A stretch of 13,282 bases of DNA. It comes from Butyriboletus loyo (Eukaryota; Basidiomycota; Agaricomycetes; Boletales; Boletaceae). Shown one piece after another: positions 1,747 to 13,134 of this stretch. Location: contig JBBPSI010000411.1 in the NCBI GenBank assembly GCA_038093515.1, positions 1 to 13,282 of the forward strand, in the 5' to 3' direction. Position 1 is the first letter of the stretch, and each line of letters starts with the position of its first letter. Made by a program: the position numbers and the translations under genes. The notes beneath the pieces are model-generated. The model was not told the origin of the DNA. It made no database searches and saw only the letters and a program-made list of their open reading frames with translations.

Positions 1747-3510
1747 AAACTGCTCGCAGTCATTCACGCATTAGAAGAATGGTGACACTACCTGCGAGGT
1801 ACTGGTCACCAGGTCGAGATTCTCACCGACCATAAGAATCTCACGTATTTCCGCCAACCAAACAAGTTGTCTCGCCGACAAGCGCGTTGGCTCATGTTCC
1901 TGCAGGACTTCGACCTGCATTTCCATCACATTCCAGGGACGCAGATGGGACCTGCCGACGCCCTGTCCCGACGAGACAATGTTGACACCTCTACCGACAA
2001 CCAGGAGGTCACCCTCCTCCCCGAAAACCTGTTCGCCAGAAAGATCGATGTCGCTCTCGCCGAAAAGATTGCCGCCTCGACTCCCAGTGACCCAATGATC
2101 AAGCGGTGCATGCAGGCTCTCTACGAAGACTCCCCCCTCTTCCCCAAAATGAATGCTGGGGACTGGGACTTCGACGGTAAAGAGCTGTATTTTCGCAAGA
2201 AACGCTACATCCTGGAGGCGGCCTGTGTCGACCTCATCCGATCCCTCCATGAGAGCCCAGCTGGGGGTCATGGTGGTATATTCCGCACCCAGAATCTGGT
2301 GCAACGTGATTACTGGTGGCCTGGCATGGCTAATCTGGTCCGCCGCTTCGTTTCCAGCTGTGCCATATGTCAGGCGCATAAGGTTAATACTCACCCCACC
2401 ATGCCCCCTCTCACCCCTCTGGCCAGCGTGGCCTCTCGTCCTTTTGAGCAGGTCTTGGTCGACCTCATCACCGGCCTCCCTCCCTCTTTGGGTTATGATT
2501 CAGTCATGGTCGTGGTAGACCATGGGCTTACAAAGGGGGTAATTTATTCCCCTTGCAACAAAGATATCGACGCAGCAGGAGTCGCCAGATTATTTTTCAA
2601 AACTGTCTTCCTCCGTTTTGGCCTACACTCCCGCTGCATCTCAGACAGAGGCCCACAGTTCGCATCCGCTTTCGCTAGAGAACTCGCGAGACTTCTCAAT
2701 TACGATCTCGCCCTCTCCTCCACATATCACCCACAGACCGATGGTGAAACGGAGCGAGTCAACCAAGAACTGGAGACGTATCTCCGGATCTTCTGCAATG
2801 GACACCTGGAACGATGGGCCGAGCTGCTCCCTATGGCCGAGTTCTCCCACAACTCGATGACCCACTCCTCGACCAACGTGACTCCCTTCTCTCTGATGGT
2901 TGGCTATGAGCTGAGATCGTATCCTCCAATCGGAAAGATGTTTCTCCCCGCCCTCAAATCCAGACTCTCGGAACTCATGGGAGCCCGAATGGAAGCTCTA
3001 GAAGCCCATGAGAAGGCACGGCAATTAATGAAGGAACAGATCTCGTCCAAGTTCTGCCCATGGAAAACTGGAGATAAGGTTTGGCTAGAAGGACGCAACC
3101 TTCGACTCAGGTACCCGTCGAAGAAGCTCGCCCCTAGACGGGAAGATCCGTTCAAAATTGCCCAAGTCATCTCCCCTGTGGCGTACAGGCTCCGACTACC
3201 GCCGACCTGGAAGATCCATGACGTCTTCCATGCCTCCCTCCTGACTCCTTATCATGAAACGGCGGAACATGGTCCCAATTTCACAAACCCTCCTCCGGAA
3301 GAAATAGACGGAGATGAAGAGTACAAGATCGATCGGATCTTGTCCCACCGCGGTTCAAAGGGACGCTGTCAATTCCTTGTGTCCTGGAAAGGGTATTCCA
3401 CAGCAGAAAACACCTGGGAACCAAACGGGAACCTGGTCCATGCGCAGGCCTTGCTCAAGGCTTATAAACTGCGCCACCCGAAGGATTTTCCCTCCCCATC
3501 TTCGCAGTAA
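1747..3510 (+). pseudogene. Ty3/gypsy Pol fragment: RNase H end, integrase, chromodomain (element 2)
   Basis: The frame begins at the junction with LTR 1 in the RNase H domain (LLAVIHALEEW, then TDHKNLTYF and the HHIPGTQMGPADALSRR motif). An in-frame TGA at 1783-1785 sits where an Arg is expected, consistent with CGA to TGA. From 1786 the frame is open to the TAA at 3508-3510. The integrase has the zinc-binding HHCC region (about 2240-2375, ending CAIC), then the DD35E triad: Asp 2461-2463 (VDLITGLP), Asp 2644-2646 (SDRGPQF) and Glu 2752-2754 (TERVNQ), with 35 residues between the last two. A GPY/F-like domain and a chromodomain (about 3312-3475, with LVSWKGY and NTWEPNGNL) follow. The gene cannot be complete because it lacks its 5' half here. 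Sites and fold look intact. Confidence 0.9.
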
Positions 3511-7597: not shown

Positions 7598-10488
7598 CTA
7601 CCTACACAAAGGGTGCTGCTTTATTATGTCCATGACAAGGTCCACTTTTTCATCTTCAGATTTGGTGGCAAAATGTTTGGATAAGATCTCATCCAGTTTC
7701 TTTGATATCTGAGCAGATACCCCAGATGCTTTATACCTTTCTTCTGCTAAGGCAAAGGGATTTTCAGATTTATTTTGAACCAGAGTGAAGGAATATTGAA
7801 GAAGTAGTATAAGGCCTATGAAAATATATTGAAGTTATGAAAATTCAAAATGAATTGACTTACCAATGCCATGTTGCAGAACCTTTGTCTCAGTGTTGGT
7901 TCTCTTTTTGATCTGAAATATATAAAGAGTTAATACAGTAAATATAATTTCATGATTGTACATGCCACCATGGTCTTTGCCTCTGTTGGTTGAAGAGAAC
8001 TCTGAAATGAATGAAACTGTTGTAGCAAATAGCTAGTATGATCAAATTAAATGATTTACCAGGGAGGACTGAGGGTTGGTGACAATCTGCATGATGTCAG
8101 TTGCAATATAAAGACCTTCAAACTAAACACTGACACTCTGGTCAAATTATGAGTACAATATTTAAACAATCACATAGATGTCTTACCTTCTAAATGTAGA
8201 CAAAGCATAAAATTAAATAACACAAATAAGATTACAAGGCAAAATAAACTTACATCCTATAGGAATGATAATCAATTCATAGCTGCATAACTATTACAGT
8301 AGCAGGATAATACTTACCAGCTAAGTATGGCAGAAGTTTGAAATAATAGGGTTATATTAAAATTTCAGAATAAATAGAGATTTCATGAACATGCTGCATA
8401 TTTCAATTGTGAATGAGATCACTTACATTCTATTGAAAAGGAAACATGAGAGGCAGGCATGCATATATTAGTAATACACATTAGAATAATATATCATGTG
8501 ATTTACCTTCTGGAAGGAAGAGTAAAATGGGCAGATAAATCATTCATTCTCCAATGTCAGGTCAGATCACTCACTGCCTGTCAATGAGAAAGCAAGAAAA
8601 TTAATGAACATGAATTAATCAGCAATCAACATTTTCACATGAATAAAAAGATGCTCACAAACTGGTATCCAAAGAGCCATAGAAGCAGACAGGTCAACCA
8701 TCAGAGAGATCAGCAACAGCATCTGACCTAGAGTCCATATGAAACCACATACCTTCTGTGAAATAAAGAGCAGCAGGGAGGATACTTCTTATCAGAATGT
8801 TTATTTTAGATCCACATCAGACCGCTTACTTCCTATCAGTGGAAGAGAACAAAGAGAGTTCATTAACAGTGTTCTTCTTTGAAATCTATATTAGATTACT
8901 TACTTGCTATGAAGGTAAATGAGCAAGAGGGATGCTCATGAGAAACACTACATTTTAAATTCACATTGCATGACTTACTGCCTATTAATGGGAGAGAAAT
9001 GGGGGGAATGCTCATCAGCACTATCTCCAAATTCACATCCAGCCACTTACATGCTATCAATTGGGGGAAATAGGAGGAATGAATGGTCATCAGCACCATT
9101 CCCATTCTAATTCACATCCAGCCACTTACATTCTGTCAATGGTGGGAAACAGGAGAAATGATCATCAGCACCATTCTCATTCAAACTCACATCCAGCCAC
9201 TTACAAGCTATGTATCAATGGGGGAAATGGGAGGAATGGTCATCAGCCCCATTCTTGTTCCAATTCACATCCAGCCACTTACATCCTATCAATGGGGAGA
9301 AATAGGAGGAATGGTCACCATCAGCACCATTCTCATTCCAATTCACATCCAGCCACTTACAGCCTATCAATTGGGAGAAATAGGGGGAATGGTCATCAGC
9401 ACCATTCTTGTTCCAATTCATATCCAGCCACTCACAAGCTATGTATCAATGGGGGGAAATAGGAGGAACAGTCATCAGCACTATTCTCATTCCAATTCAC
9501 ATCCAGCCACTTACAGGCTATCAATGGGTGGAAATAGGAGGAATGGTCACCATCAGCACCATTCTCATTCCTGTTCACATCCAGCCACTTACATCCTATC
9601 AATGGGGAGAAATAGGAGGAATAGTTATCAGCACTATTCTCATTCCAATTCACATCCAGCCACTTACATGCTATCAATTGGGGGAAATAGGAGGAATGAA
9701 TGGTCATCAGCACCATTCCAATTCTAATTCACATCCAGCCACTTACATTCTATCAATGGTGGGAAACAGGAGAAATGATCATCAGCACCATTCTCATTCC
9801 AACTCACATCTGGCCACTTACAAGCTATGTATCAATGGAGAGGAATGGTCATCAGCACCATTCTCATTCCAATTCACATCCAGCCACTTACACCCTATCA
9901 AAGGGAGGAATGGTCATCAGTACCATTCTCATTCCAATTCACATCAAGCCACTTACATCCTATCAATGGGGGGAAATAGGAGAAATGGTCACCATCAGCA
10001 CCATTCTCATTCCTATTCACATCCAGCCACTTACAAGCTATGTATCAATGGGGGGGAATACAAGGAATGGTCATCAGCACCATTCTCATTCCAATTCATA
10101 TCCAGCCACTCACAAGCTATGTATCAATGGGGGGAAATAGGAGGAATGGTCATCAGCACTATTCTCATTCCAATTCACATCCAGCCACTTACAGCCTATC
10201 AATTGGGAGAAATAGGGGGAATGGTCATCAGCACCATTCTCATTCCAATTCACATCCAGTCACTTACATCCTTCAATGGGGAGAAATAGGAAGAATGGTC
10301 ATCAGCACCATTCCCATTCCTATTCACATTCAGCCACTTACAAGCTATGTATCAATTGGGAGAAAGAGGAGGAATGGTCATCAGCACCATTCTCATTCCA
10401 ATTCACATCCAGCCACTTACACCCTATCAAAGGGAGGAATGGTCATCAGTACCATTCTCATTCCAATTCACATCAAGCCACTTACATC
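7598..10488 (-). CDS. Intron-rich gene with 31 single-codon micro-exons (3' part, unknown function)
   Basis: The 3' end has four ordinary exons: 8060-8122 (63 nt, FEGLYIATDIMQIV), 7969-8001 (33 nt), 7864-7912 (49 nt) and 7598-7815 (218 nt, 73 codons open including TAG). Introns are 8002-8059, 7913-7968 (weak GTGGCA donor) and 7816-7863. The frame stays open across all four. Upstream, from 8187 to 10488, 31 triplets each lie between an AG acceptor (YAG in all but one) and a GT donor, separated by introns of 61-106 nt. None is a stop codon, and the predicted peptide is Leu-rich and amphipathic. The 5' end is lost to element 4, so the start is unseen. Intron lengths such as 61, 62, 67 and 76 nt mean the frame exists only after splicing. 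The C-terminus (ENPFALAEERYKASG, SKKLDEILSKHF) looks helical and charged. No known domain was recognised and no signal peptide is visible in this part. It may be a decayed or silent gene, given the CpG loss. Confidence 0.62.
8123..8981 (-). other. Diverged part of the micro-exon chain (11 codons)
   Basis: Eleven triplets lie at 8979 (A), 8904 (Q), 8830 (E), 8753 (K), 8659 (F), 8575 (A), 8507 (K), 8427 (N), 8318 (L), 8254 (D) and 8187 (K), given by lowest coordinate. Introns between them are 8907-8978, 8833-8903, 8756-8829, 8662-8752, 8578-8658, 8510-8574, 8430-8506, 8321-8426, 8257-8317, 8190-8253 and 8123-8186. Donors are GTAAGT, GTAAGC, GTATGT, GTGAGC, GTGAGT, GTAAAT or GTAAGA, and every acceptor is TAG or CAG. 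Branch-like sites include TACTAAT in the 8430-8506 intron and CTGAC in 8510-8574. The intron bodies do not resemble one another, yet the acceptor-to-donor spacing is always 3 nt. Confidence 0.65.
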
Positions 10489-10521
10489 CTATCAATGGGG
10501 AGAAATAGGAGGAATGGTCAT
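8982..10521 (-). repeat. Tandem array, about 75-bp monomer = one intron plus one codon (20 copies)
   Basis: Monomers are 65-79 bp and mostly over 85% alike by eye. On the minus strand each reads GTAAGT donor, CTGAT branch-like site, a pyrimidine-rich stretch (CCATTCCTCCTATTTC), a TAG acceptor and then one triplet. Triplets by lowest coordinate are 10486 D, 10421 G, 10342 L, 10268 D, 10193 A, 10114 L, 10035 L, 9957 D, 9892 G, 9822 L, 9747 N, 9668 H, 9593 D, 9515 P, 9436 L, 9361 A, 9283 D, 9205 L, 9130 N and 9051 H. Donor variants GTGAGT occur at 9435 and 10113, and one acceptor is AAG (10271). The order H-N-L occurs twice, 617 bp apart, and L-G-D twice, about 529 bp apart, so groups of monomers were duplicated together. 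The array is cut by element 4. Long ORFs on either strand through it are by-products of the repeat. Confidence 0.9.
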
Positions 10522-10588
10522 CGTTATAATCGTATCTCTTATAACTATCTTTTGCATTCGGACTTCGTCATATTTCTCTTTCAAAGGT

Positions 10589-11884: not shown

Positions 11885-11938
11885 ATCAATCTGGGTTCAG
11901 AAACTTCGGAGGATTTCCCGGTAGACAACGAGAAAAGA

Positions 11939-13134
11939 ATGTCAGATCCAGGGCCTTCCCACACTCCACATGCCCCCGCCCCAGGATTCGATGACCAAAC
12001 CCTGCGCGCCCTCTTCGCGCAGTGGATGGAAAAAGATCAGCAAGGAGGAATTTCAAAGAAGGTTGCTGACCCAGGAGAATGGGACGGCGATCGGGAAAAG
12101 TTCCACCACTGGTGGACCTCCCTCAAGGTCTGGGTCTCCGTCAATAACTGGAAGACCGACAAACTCCGGACTGTGGCAGTTCTTAGCCGCATTAAGGGAA
12201 AGGGTCAGGACTTTTCCCAAATCCTCTTAGAAGACTACGTCACCGACGAGGAAAAATACATCGACCCCAAAGATAGACCTAGGGGAAAAAAGGGAGATCT
12301 GGCATGGCCCGAATGGGATACCCTTCAGGACACCATACGGAGTCACTTCCAGATCGACGTCTTGGCACATCAGGCGTTGATCAAATTAACGGCCCTTACC
12401 CAGGGTCAACAACAAATCGATGGATTCCTCGAGAGGTTCAAGGTCCTCTATCGTCAATCGGAGTGCGAGCCGAAACATGCGGTCGAACTCCTCAAGCGTG
12501 CTGTAAAGTACGAAGTATACAAGCAGGTTTGCTTGACCGTCGACGAAGATACGTTGACGGATTTCTCCCTCCTTACAGAGGAAATTCGGAGGATGGGCCG
12601 AGTCTTCGAACAGATGCAGGCCGAAAGGGGAAACGGGCAAGCCCGACAATGGCGCCCTTATTCCCAACAGCCGCAACGTAGTTACCCGGCTCCTAAAGGA
12701 CCTCCTCCCGGCTATACTGCTGTCGGGACTCAACCAGGGCGTGGCGCCCCGATGGATCTCAGCGCCCAGCAATCAGGTCCCGAAACTAGGACTTGTTTTG
12801 GCTGCGGCAACGTCGGGCACATCCGCCCCAATTGTCCCAGAACCCTAACCGTCGGGACAAAGCCGGTTCCAACGCTCGCCCGAAAGTACGGCAGCAATGG
12901 ATTCAGCAAGCCGATGGAACTTACGTACAAGGATGGGTTCCAGTCAACTCCGCGGAGGTAACCCCTCCAAACAATTATCAGTCAAGGCCTTTACCGGCAC
13001 CACCTGTGGTTGGAGCACCACAACAAGGAGAAACCTCCCAGCGCGCCGCGTATATGGGAGAAGACGCTAGAGCTTACTGGGCGGACTTGTTCGCTTGTGA
13101 AGCAAAGGAAAAGGCCGCGCGGTCTTTAAAATAG
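11939..13134 (+). CDS. Gag polyprotein of element 4 (with one apparent -1 frame change)
   Basis: The ATG at 11939 opens a Ty3-type Gag: a Pro-rich N-terminus, then the capsid-like domain (FHHWWTSLKVWVSV, WPEWDTLQDTIRSHF, DGFLERFKVLYRQSE), a basic linker, the PMDLSA motif, and the zinc knuckle CFGCGNVGHIRPNC at residues 286-299. In that frame the ORF stops at 12961. The -1 frame from about 12840 continues with better protein (DGTYVQGWVPVN, EDARAYWADLFACE) to a TAG at 13132-13134. I see no slippery heptamer at the first change, so a one-base deletion or a sequencing error near 12836-12850 is the simplest reading. Full length would be just under 400 residues. Gag forms the particle in which reverse transcription takes place. 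Confidence 0.85.
13125..13131 (+). promoter_or_regulatory. Candidate -1 ribosomal frameshift site TTTAAAA
   Basis: In the gag frame the codons are TCT-TTA-AAA-TAG, so T-TTA-AAA fits the X-XXY-YYZ slippery heptamer exactly and touches the gag stop. The -1 frame is open from there to the window end. A 5-bp inverted repeat, CTTAG (13143-13147) with CTAAG (13159-13163), could form a weak downstream stem. Confidence 0.55.

What the first reader, a model, noticed from the sequence alone, without database searches (positions are those of the whole stretch)
7598..10488. A gene built from a chain of at least 31 single-codon exons
Seen: on the minus strand, 31 consecutive triplets each lie exactly between an AG acceptor (YAG in all but one) and a GT donor. 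None is a stop codon, and they run in frame into four longer exons ending at a TAG (7598-7600). Intron lengths vary and are often not multiples of 3, so a continuous frame exists only after splicing. Known: micro-exons down to 1-3 nt are documented in eukaryotes, and genes made mostly of micro-exons exist (schistosome MEGs, aphid bicycle genes), but their exons are usually longer. Inference: splicing in 5' to 3' order could work, since each step joins one codon to the growing exon and leaves the next GTAAGT donor intact. I know of no described fungal gene with this many one-codon exons.
Basis: partly seen in the sequence, partly recalled or inferred. Interest (0 to 1): 0.92.

Follow-up and report, generated by a model that had tools for sequence, protein, structure and literature searches.

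The report
Fungal gene spliced codon by codon
A family of mushroom GTPase genes appears to carry a run of about 40 to 60 consecutive exons that are each one codon long, and the codons in the middle of the run vary far more than the introns around them; if RNA confirms it, this is a new way to build a variable stretch of protein.

Summary
The window copy has 32, not 31, consecutive single-codon exons (10488 to 8135, minus strand), then four longer exons. It is the 3' half of a gene whose 5' half is cut off at 10522 by a gypsy-like element. Paralogs in the same genome (relatives are Boletales) show the whole gene: a GTPase (Pfam MMR_HSR1), 41-44 one-codon exons, then C-terminal exons, open from ATG to stop (C46: 52 exons; C6: 55 exons). 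A splicing search with no exon-length preference gave only 3-nt exons in the C46, one C159 and the window chains (41/41, 43/43, 31/31) and nearly only 3-nt exons elsewhere. At the two conserved ends of the chain both splice sites are kept (AG 276/276, GT 275/276 plus one GC) and no triplet is a stop, although intron bodies of the 3' end fall to 63% identity between paralogs. This argues strongly against one giant intron. The middle is a tandem array of a 72-nt intron plus one NNT codon, whose first two bases are saturated with variation (p about 0.67) even between units with identical flanking introns. I read it as a splice-assembled hypervariable linker in a GTPase family. No transcript was available; splicing is inferred.

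The parts
10486..10488 (-). single-codon exon 1 of the window copy, GAT (array); its upstream intron is cut at 10522 by a retroelement
10421..10423 (-). single-codon exon GGT (array)
10342..10344 (-). single-codon exon CTT (array, ACATAG acceptor)
10268..10270 (-). single-codon exon GAT (array; the one AAG acceptor)
10193..10195 (-). single-codon exon GCT (array)
10114..10116 (-). single-codon exon CTT (array)
10035..10037 (-). single-codon exon CTT (array)
9957..9959 (-). single-codon exon GAT (array)
9892..9894 (-). single-codon exon GGT (array)
9822..9824 (-). single-codon exon CTT (array)
9747..9749 (-). single-codon exon AAT (array)
9668..9670 (-). single-codon exon CAT (array)
9593..9595 (-). 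single-codon exon GAT (array)
9515..9517 (-). single-codon exon CCT (array)
9436..9438 (-). single-codon exon CTT (array)
9361..9363 (-). single-codon exon GCT (array)
9283..9285 (-). single-codon exon GAT (array)
9205..9207 (-). single-codon exon CTT (array)
9130..9132 (-). single-codon exon AAT (array)
9051..9053 (-). single-codon exon CAT (last of the array)
8979..8981 (-). single-codon exon GCA (conserved 3' chain)
   Evidence: AG and GT kept in the 10 rows with data
8904..8906 (-). single-codon exon CAA (conserved 3' chain)
8830..8832 (-). single-codon exon GAA (conserved 3' chain)
8753..8755 (-). single-codon exon AAG (conserved 3' chain)
8659..8661 (-). single-codon exon TTT, Phe in all 11 rows
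8575..8577 (-). single-codon exon GCA (conserved 3' chain)
8507..8509 (-). single-codon exon AAG (conserved 3' chain)
8427..8429 (-). single-codon exon AAT, Asn in all 11 rows (one row, L014, has a GC donor here)
8318..8320 (-). single-codon exon CTG, Leu in all 11 rows (CTG or TTG)
8254..8256 (-). single-codon exon GAT, Asp in all 11 rows
8187..8189 (-). single-codon exon AAG (conserved 3' chain)
8060..8086 (-). 27-nt exon, IVTNPQSSL in this copy
7969..8001 (-). 33-nt exon; its donor (GTGGCA, or GCATGT 3 nt further) is ambiguous here, both keep frame; in L016 and L017 a GTATGT donor follows the same ATG
7864..7912 (-). 49-nt exon
7598..7815 (-). last exon, 218 nt, ends TAG; open in the 12 loci in which I read it; dN/dS 0.47 among near copies
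8983..10522 (-). hypervariable tandem array: unit = intron of about 72 nt plus one NNT codon
10523..13282 (+). gypsy-like element that cuts off the 5' part of this gene copy (gag-like ORF 11885-12961; Pfam gag and CCHC matches below cut-off)

Best explanation
This is one 5'-truncated copy of a multi-copy GTPase gene family in a fungus whose nearest named relatives are Boletales. A run of about 41 to 58 consecutive single-codon exons encodes the linker between the G-domain part and the C-terminal helical part. The introns in the run are short (48-106 nt in the window; the first of the run about 125-150 nt in copies that have it), each has its own donor and acceptor, most have a branch-site-like motif, and all lie in phase 0, so intron-defined splicing can add one codon at a time (inferred). 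The run has a conserved 5' end (15 codons), a conserved 3' end (12 codons) and a middle tandem array of intron-plus-codon units. The array changes in length between copies, and the first two bases of its codons have diversified to saturation while the introns stay nearly uniform. The likely result is a GTPase whose linker is hypervariable in length and sequence between gene copies. By analogy with the repeat arrays of fungal NLRs it may be a recognition surface (inferred, weak). Because all sites are phase 0 and NNT is never a stop, array units can be gained, lost or skipped without breaking the frame.
For: Shown: a splicing search with no length preference, run on 15 loci, gave exons of exactly 3 nt in 41/41 (C46), 43/43 (C159, L009), 31/31 (window), 22/22 (C158), 20/20 and 23/24 (C8, two stretches), 11/11 (C152), 53/54 (C159, L010), 58/59 (C149), 42/43 (C6), 49/51 (C111), 20/22 (C337), 21/22 (C75), 19/21 (C395, overlaps C75) and 16/19 (C254); for C6 a re-run with lowered site thresholds and a length term gave 44/44. 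Splice sites at 12 conserved 3' units x 11 loci: AG 131/131, GT 130/131 plus one GC, stops 0/131 (1 cell without data set aside), with intron-body identity 0.627 between near copies and the two far paralogs. At 15 conserved 5' units x 10 loci: AG 145/145, GT 145/145, stops 0/145 (5 cells set aside: 2 where L009 has lost a unit, 3 past the L029 contig end). Open frames: C46 copy, 52 exons, 529 aa; C6 paralog, 55 exons, 533 aa; the L009 copy reads open through the chain and its last exon is open. Long exons dN/dS 0.47, 0.42 and 0.50. GTPase: MMR_HSR1 23.7 and 23.4 bits against a cut-off of 21.9. Array codons: p 0.647, 0.723 and 0.023 at positions 1-3 against an intron mean of 0.06 in 88 units; codon p 0.674 in 72 pairs with zero differences in both flanking introns. 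Genome-wide, the three-donor chain pattern occurs 118+102 times against 0+11 for the reversed control; the places listed (contigs C6 to C149 only) all lie at family loci.
Against: No RNA evidence. No database protein matched the chain-and-C-terminal segment at E<=10. Similarity of the conserved 3' peptide to linkers of full-length relatives is not significant (P 0.15; the other three peptides 0.45-0.91). 8 of 35 window introns lack a CTRAY motif within 8-62 nt of the acceptor. A few array units are 1 or 2 nt (C111 and C149; C159 copy L010), which would shift the frame if used. The window copy itself has lost its 5' half. All sites are phase 0, so skipping the whole chain would also leave an open frame. 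Absence of stops alone is weak evidence: it occurs in 21% of random draws of intron columns.
Confidence: 0.85

Rival explanations
1. The whole region is one long (several kb) intron containing a minisatellite; the AG-NNN-GT motifs are repeat consensus, not exons.
For: 20 of the 32 window triplets lie in a tandem repeat; skipping the chain also keeps the frame because all sites are phase 0; no transcript is available.
Against: The 27 conserved end units are not part of the tandem array and keep both splice sites in 275 of 276 cells (the other has a GC donor), while intron bodies of the 3' end fall to 63% identity. Read by eye, deletions in the L009 and L012 copies left an acceptor or removed a whole unit.
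Confidence: 0.08
2. The chain is real, but the codon hypervariability is diversifying selection on the protein acting on ordinary mutation, as in fungal NLR repeats.
For: Changes at positions 1-2 of NNT codons change the amino acid; fungal NLR repeats show concerted evolution with positively selected codons (PMC4986451, abstract and passages).
Against: The codon-to-intron difference ratio is about 62 in 724 pairs of near-identical units, extreme for selection alone; the ACATAG-acceptor sub-lineage keeps CTT in 15 of 17 units although its introns differ as much as others (p 0.062).
Confidence: 0.5
3. The chain is real, but the codon diversity comes from a targeted process (local hypermutation or non-templated junction repair when units are gained).
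For: Codon identity is flat with respect to flanking divergence, even at zero differences; off-length units affect the same spot; the frozen ACATAG sub-lineage suggests a cis requirement.
Against: No known fungal enzyme for it (recall); nearly all array units are exactly 3 nt (150 of 154), so selection must at least filter; a few recent duplicates keep their codon.
Confidence: 0.35
4. Introner-like elements: a mobile intron inserted repeatedly at codon boundaries of an older uninterrupted exon.
For: Near-identical introns separated by single codons; introner-like elements are known in fungi (PMC4457414, PMC9860276, search listing and abstract starts only).
Against: DNA searches and the listed pattern hits found these introns only at family loci; codon strings of different copies do not look, by eye, like one ancestral peptide; no excess of identical adjacent codons, 23 of 141 against 20.8 expected, as target duplication would give.
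Confidence: 0.1

Closest known systems
Micro-exon genes of schistosomes (MEGs) and aphid bicycle genes (features recalled)
   Same: Many very short in-phase exons; expanded, fast-evolving gene family
   Different: Here the micro-exons are exactly one codon each, 41 or more in a row, and make only about 8% of the coding sequence of the C46 copy; the host gene is a GTPase; the repeat unit is an intron plus one codon
Isolated 3-nt exons (Drosophila homothorax, PMC7392893; two 3-nt exons in Dactylellina lipS, PMC5639578)
   Same: Single-codon exons do occur
   Different: One or two per gene in these examples, not dozens in series
Recursive splicing / zero-nucleotide exons
   Same: Stepwise regeneration of a donor directly after an acceptor; a conserved TAG|GTAATT zero-exon lies in the first chain intron in 10 of 10 loci
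   Different: In the chain each step leaves one codon in the mRNA
Hypervariable repeats of fungal NLRs (Podospora het-d/het-e, PMC4986451)
   Same: Tandem units homogenised by exchange with hypervariable codons; multi-copy family; length variation
   Different: There the units are protein repeats; here the unit is an intron and the protein need not show a repeat; no NOD or WD/ANK/TPR domain passes Pfam's cut-off
Introner-like elements
   Same: Near-identical spliceosomal introns in multiple positions
   Different: Found here only in one gene family and in tandem
Boletales G-domain proteins (MMR_HSR1)
   Same: Same GTPase and C-terminal region (best hit 68% identity to a Butyriboletus protein over 72% of the query)
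   Different: The linker after the WFPH motif is built by the one-codon chain

Membership tests
Boletales MMR_HSR1 G-domain proteins | Pfam MMR_HSR1 match above its cut-off, with P-loop and TKxD motifs | tested here: met
   23.7 and 23.4 bits against 21.9; GRANAGKT and FTKWD or FTKCD in the models; the window copy itself lacks this part
Boletales MMR_HSR1 G-domain proteins | Homologous C-terminal region after the linker | tested here: met
   Alignment with P0003, P0004 and P0007; a search with the chain-and-C-terminal segment alone gave no hit at E<=10, so this similarity is seen only in the whole-protein alignment
Micro-exon genes (schistosome MEG type) | Most of the coding sequence lies in micro-exons (definition recalled) | tested here: not met
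   41 x 3 = 123 nt of a 529-codon frame in the C46 copy
Micro-exon genes (schistosome MEG type) | Many symmetric in-phase very short exons | tested here: met
   41 of 52 and 44 of 55 exons are one codon, phase 0
Aphid bicycle genes | Secreted protein with paired CYC motifs (recalled) | not tested
   No signal-peptide tool; CYC motif not searched
Introner-like elements | Same intron dispersed in unrelated genes | tested here: not met
   DNA searches and the listed pattern hits fall at family loci only; the tools skip very common words and truncate lists
Introner-like elements | Target-site duplication at insertion | tested here: inconclusive
   Indirect test only: adjacent identical codons 23 of 141 against 20.8 expected, P 0.32
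Fungal NLR | NOD (NB-ARC or NACHT) domain and WD/ANK/TPR repeats | tested here: not met
   Only MMR_HSR1 passes its cut-off; NB-ARC 18.7 bits against a cut-off of 23.5 in the C6 protein
Recursive splicing | Acceptor directly followed by donor, conserved | tested here: met
   TAG|GTAATT in the first chain intron in 10 of 10 loci
Recursive splicing | Stepwise splicing intermediates | not testable with these tools
   No RNA data

The most novel reading that the evidence does not exclude
The array is a dedicated diversity generator. Each unit is a complete intron carrying one NNT codon, so it cannot be a stop and cannot shift the frame. The two variable bases of each codon are altered by a targeted process that depends on the adjacent acceptor. 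The spliceosome assembles, and may combinatorially sample, the codons into a recognition linker that differs between gene copies, individuals or even transcripts.
Probability: 0.25. Interest if true: 0.98.

Novelty: categorically new. Interest (0 to 1): 0.94.

Why it matters
It sets an extreme, natural test of how small and how numerous exons can be, and whether intron definition alone can splice dozens of one-codon exons in order. It shows a tandem repeat whose product need not be a protein repeat, because the repeated part is intron. The decoupling of codon and intron variation makes the choice between diversifying selection and targeted mutation directly testable by sequencing. Standard annotation is likely to miss such genes: of 120 related database proteins, 105 carry a W-F-P-type motif and 75 of these end within 30 residues of it, the point where the chain begins here (24 run 90 residues or more), so the architecture may be hidden in other Boletales genomes. 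I rate it categorically new because, although each ingredient has a precedent, I found no described gene built as an array of intron-plus-one-codon units in the listings of my searches (open-licence PMC papers only).

Tried and rejected
Tried without result: two region searches of the protein database for the chain-encoded and C-terminal segment (no hit at E<=10); similarity of the chain peptides to linkers of 23 full-length relatives (best P 0.15, the other three 0.45-0.91); Rfam (none). Five weaker GTPase loci in the same genome (C20, C385, C209, C31, C218) show at most one AG-NNN-GT match each in the fetched stretch, no chain. Higher-order repetition of codons along arrays is not significant (lags 1-8, lowest P 0.076). 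Rejected: pure minisatellite in one giant intron (conserved ends); chance; dispersal as a small transposon (copies align over 6.7-8.6 kb within the fetched stretches). The strong statement that codons are fully independent of their surroundings had to be weakened: units with an ACATAG acceptor keep CTT (15 of 17), and TGACAG units favour GCT (10 of 19). The reversed-pattern control was not empty (11 on one strand).

Off-length exons of the unconstrained search: those in C6, C75, C395, one of C8, one each of C111, C337 and C254 turn out to be one-codon exons with weak sites that the search passed over; a further one in C337 comes from the zero-exon site; GGGTC and GGCT in C254 are unresolved; the 1-nt units in C111 and in the C159 copy L010 and the 2-nt unit in C149 look real. 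A 2-nt case in C8 lies at the junction with an LTR-like sequence. Rows dropped: 329 chain units were cut to 111 with 72-nt introns and 88 array-like ones; 158 units passed the array filter and 149 with both flanks. In one search the C149 locus entered once (L027; the overlapping L011 left out); loci without the needed region were left out (11 loci for the 3' end, 10 for the 5' end). C75 and C395 overlap in sequence; they are in different conservation tables but both in the list. In one search the pattern missed the last exon of L016 and L017; I read both as open afterwards, but they are not in the dN/dS. Structure: AlphaFold of a database relative (P0003; pLDDT 77.6) puts part of its linker in a low-confidence loop (319-340), and Foldseek finds only weak whole-chain matches to dynamin-like, IRG and G-alpha proteins, so no function is read from it.
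Full report
What is in the window. On the minus strand, 32 triplets from 10488 to 8135 each lie exactly between an AG and a GT, followed by exons of 27, 33, 49 and 218 nt ending at TAG 7598-7600. The joined reading is open (423 nt). The 10 other loci aligned do not share its acceptor, while AGT 8137-8135 with a GTCAG donor is present in 11 of 11 loci, so I prefer AGT plus a 27-nt exon. A splicing search with no preference for exon length (1-30 nt allowed) gives 31 of 31 three-nt exons; 100 dinucleotide shuffles give 7 chains, at most 2 such exons each, and a top score of 60 against 217.

The window copy is half a gene. The similarity to other copies stops at 10522, where an element with a gag-like ORF begins (11885-12961; Retrotrans_gag 18.2 and CCHC 16.5 bits, both below Pfam's cut-offs). 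In other copies of the same genome (30.3 Mb, 420 contigs, no name given) the upstream part is a GTPase. The protein search found 521 relatives; 120 were listed, and the named ones among them belong to Butyriboletus, Imleria, Chiua, Rhizopogon, Boletus, Suillus, Pisolithus and Leucogyrophana. These are Boletales (looked up for three; the rest recalled). The best is 68% identical over 72% of the query, in Butyriboletus roseoflavus. That the window's own fungus is of this order is inferred. MMR_HSR1 passes its Pfam cut-off. At least 12 loci carry the P-loop exon.

Intact genes. The C46 copy (L012) has 52 exons, 41 of them single codons, and reads open from ATG to TAG, 529 aa. A deep paralog on C6 (L020) has 55 exons, 44 of them single codons, and reads open for 533 aa. 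In that run a length term and lower site thresholds were used, while the unconstrained run gave 42 of 43 with one 18-nt exon. One C159 copy (L009) reads open through 43 single-codon exons and its last exon is open. Other copies carry defects: one stop in a GTPase exon of the other C159 copy, L010; a frame break in the C149 copy, which has the longest chain, 58 of 59 exons of 3 nt; truncation at contig ends or by LTR-like elements.

The unconstrained search over 15 loci gave three-nt exons in 41/41 (C46), 43/43 (L009), 31/31 (window), 22/22 (C158), 20/20 and 23/24 (C8), 11/11 (C152), 53/54 (L010), 58/59 (C149), 42/43 (C6), 49/51 (C111), 20/22 (C337), 21/22 (C75), 19/21 (C395) and 16/19 (C254). 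The exceptions are accounted for in Tried and rejected.

Why the chain is not a decayed repeat. The 12 units at the 3' end and 15 at the 5' end are not part of the tandem array. Aligned over 11 and 10 loci, they keep AG in 131/131 and 145/145 cells and GT in 130/131 (the other is GC, a usable donor) and 145/145; no cell is a stop. One cell and five cells without usable data were set aside. Intron bodies in the 3' alignment are 92% identical among near copies and 63% identical between near copies and the two far paralogs; the figure was not computed for the 5' end. Zero stops in 12 random intron triplet columns happens in about 21% of draws, so the absence of stops alone is weak; splice-site retention is the strong part. 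Phe, Asn, Leu and Asp at four positions are invariant in 11 of 11 loci, the Leu through CTG and TTG. Taken together, the 3' chain codons are not more conserved than introns at positions 1 and 2 (88-89% identical among near copies, introns 92%). The aligner could favour motif-to-motif matches, but the unaligned chains give the same result. Long exons evolve with dN/dS 0.47 (last exon, near copies), 0.42 (near to far) and 0.50 (GTPase exons 5-6).

The hypervariable middle. Array units of the modal length (88 of 111 with a 72-nt intron) share an intron with a mean pairwise difference of 0.06 (highest single position 0.45). The triplet positions give 0.647, 0.723 and 0.023. Of 328 pairs of units with identical introns, 281 have different triplets. 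Among 158 array units of 9 loci the codon matches in 16 of 91 within-array and 31 of 238 between-array pairs with identical introns, against 0.111 expected. With both flanking introns considered (149 units), codon positions 1-2 differ at p 0.674 in 72 pairs with no flank difference and at 0.679 in pairs with more than 12. The third base is T in 155 of 158 units, although T to C would be silent in every NNT codon. The exon is exactly 3 nt in 150 of 154 donor-anchored array units; of the other four, one reads as the triplet AAG, one lies at an LTR-like junction, and two are of 1 and 2 nt. Against full decoupling: units with an ACATAG acceptor keep CTT in 15 of 17, TGACAG units favour GCT (10 of 19), and some recent duplicates keep their codon. 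Pairs are not independent, and the introns may be homogenised by exchange, so the ratio of about 62 is relative to homogenised introns. It still cannot come from relaxed constraint alone; it needs selection for change, extra mutation at that spot, or both.

Mechanism. Shown in sequence: the introns are short and each has its own sites (48-106 nt in the window, up to about 150 nt for the first intron elsewhere); CTRAY branch-like motifs occur in 27 of 35 window introns; all chain sites are phase 0. The first chain intron also holds a conserved TAG|GTAATT, a zero-nucleotide exon, in 10 of 10 loci, which suggests recursive splicing there. The product would be a GTPase with a linker of roughly 40-60 residues after the WFPH motif, variable in length and sequence between copies. 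In full-length relatives without evidence of a chain (P0003, P0004, P0007; intronless reading frames on short contigs, probably transcripts, inferred) the same place is also variable, and in a model of P0003 part of it is a low-confidence loop. A recognition role, as for the repeat arrays of fungal NLRs, is an analogy (PMC4986451, abstract and passages).

Limits. No transcript or proteome was available; no database protein matched the chain-and-C-terminal segment; peptide similarity to relatives is not significant. The alternative of one long intron also keeps the frame and can only be closed by cDNA. The genome-wide pattern search lists only the first places (contigs C6 to C149); those all fall at family loci, and the total is 220 against 11 for the reversed control.

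Literature. Single 3-nt exons are known: an alternatively spliced one in Drosophila homothorax (PMC7392893, search listing and abstract start) and two in duplicated Dactylellina lipS genes (PMC5639578, one passage). [quoted passage not shown] Searches for single-codon exons, fungal and basidiomycete microexons, recursive splicing in fungi, introners, micro-exon genes and Boletales GTPase expansion returned nothing like a serial chain in the titles and abstract starts listed; subscription papers and preprints are mostly not held.

Noticed in passing
L012 about 2256-2396 and the same intron in L009, L010, L015, L020, L021, L022, L027, L028, L029: A TAG directly followed by GTAATT (zero-nucleotide exon, recursive splice site) is conserved in the first chain intron in 10 of 10 loci, including the deep paralogs.
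   Followed up: partly
database proteins P0001-P0120: Of 105 related proteins with a W-F-P-type motif, 75 end within 30 residues of it, where the chain begins in this genome; annotation may be failing at the same place elsewhere, or short forms are real.
   Followed up: partly
window 10522/10523; L022 about 5701; L014 gene-strand about 3450: In at least three copies an LTR-type or gypsy-like sequence abuts the one-codon array, cutting the gene inside the array.
   Followed up: partly
L011 about 2250-3455: The duplicated segments extend over 6.7-8.6 kb in the fetched stretches and seem to carry a ubiquitin-specific-protease-like gene beside the GTPase gene (domain read by eye, not searched).
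   Followed up: no
array units with ACATAG acceptors, e.g. window 10344, 10116, 10037, 9824, 9438, 9207: This sub-lineage of units has a longer acceptor end and a nearly frozen CTT codon (15 of 17), unlike the bulk of units.
   Followed up: partly
window 1786-3510 and 2-886: Two chromodomain gypsy-type integrase regions on the plus strand; for 1786-3507 Integrase_H2C2 and Chromo pass Pfam cut-offs; 2-886 was read by eye and not scanned.
   Followed up: partly
contigs C75 and C395: The chain-bearing parts of these two contigs give the same scores over the same query stretches, so they may be one locus split or duplicated by assembly.
   Followed up: no
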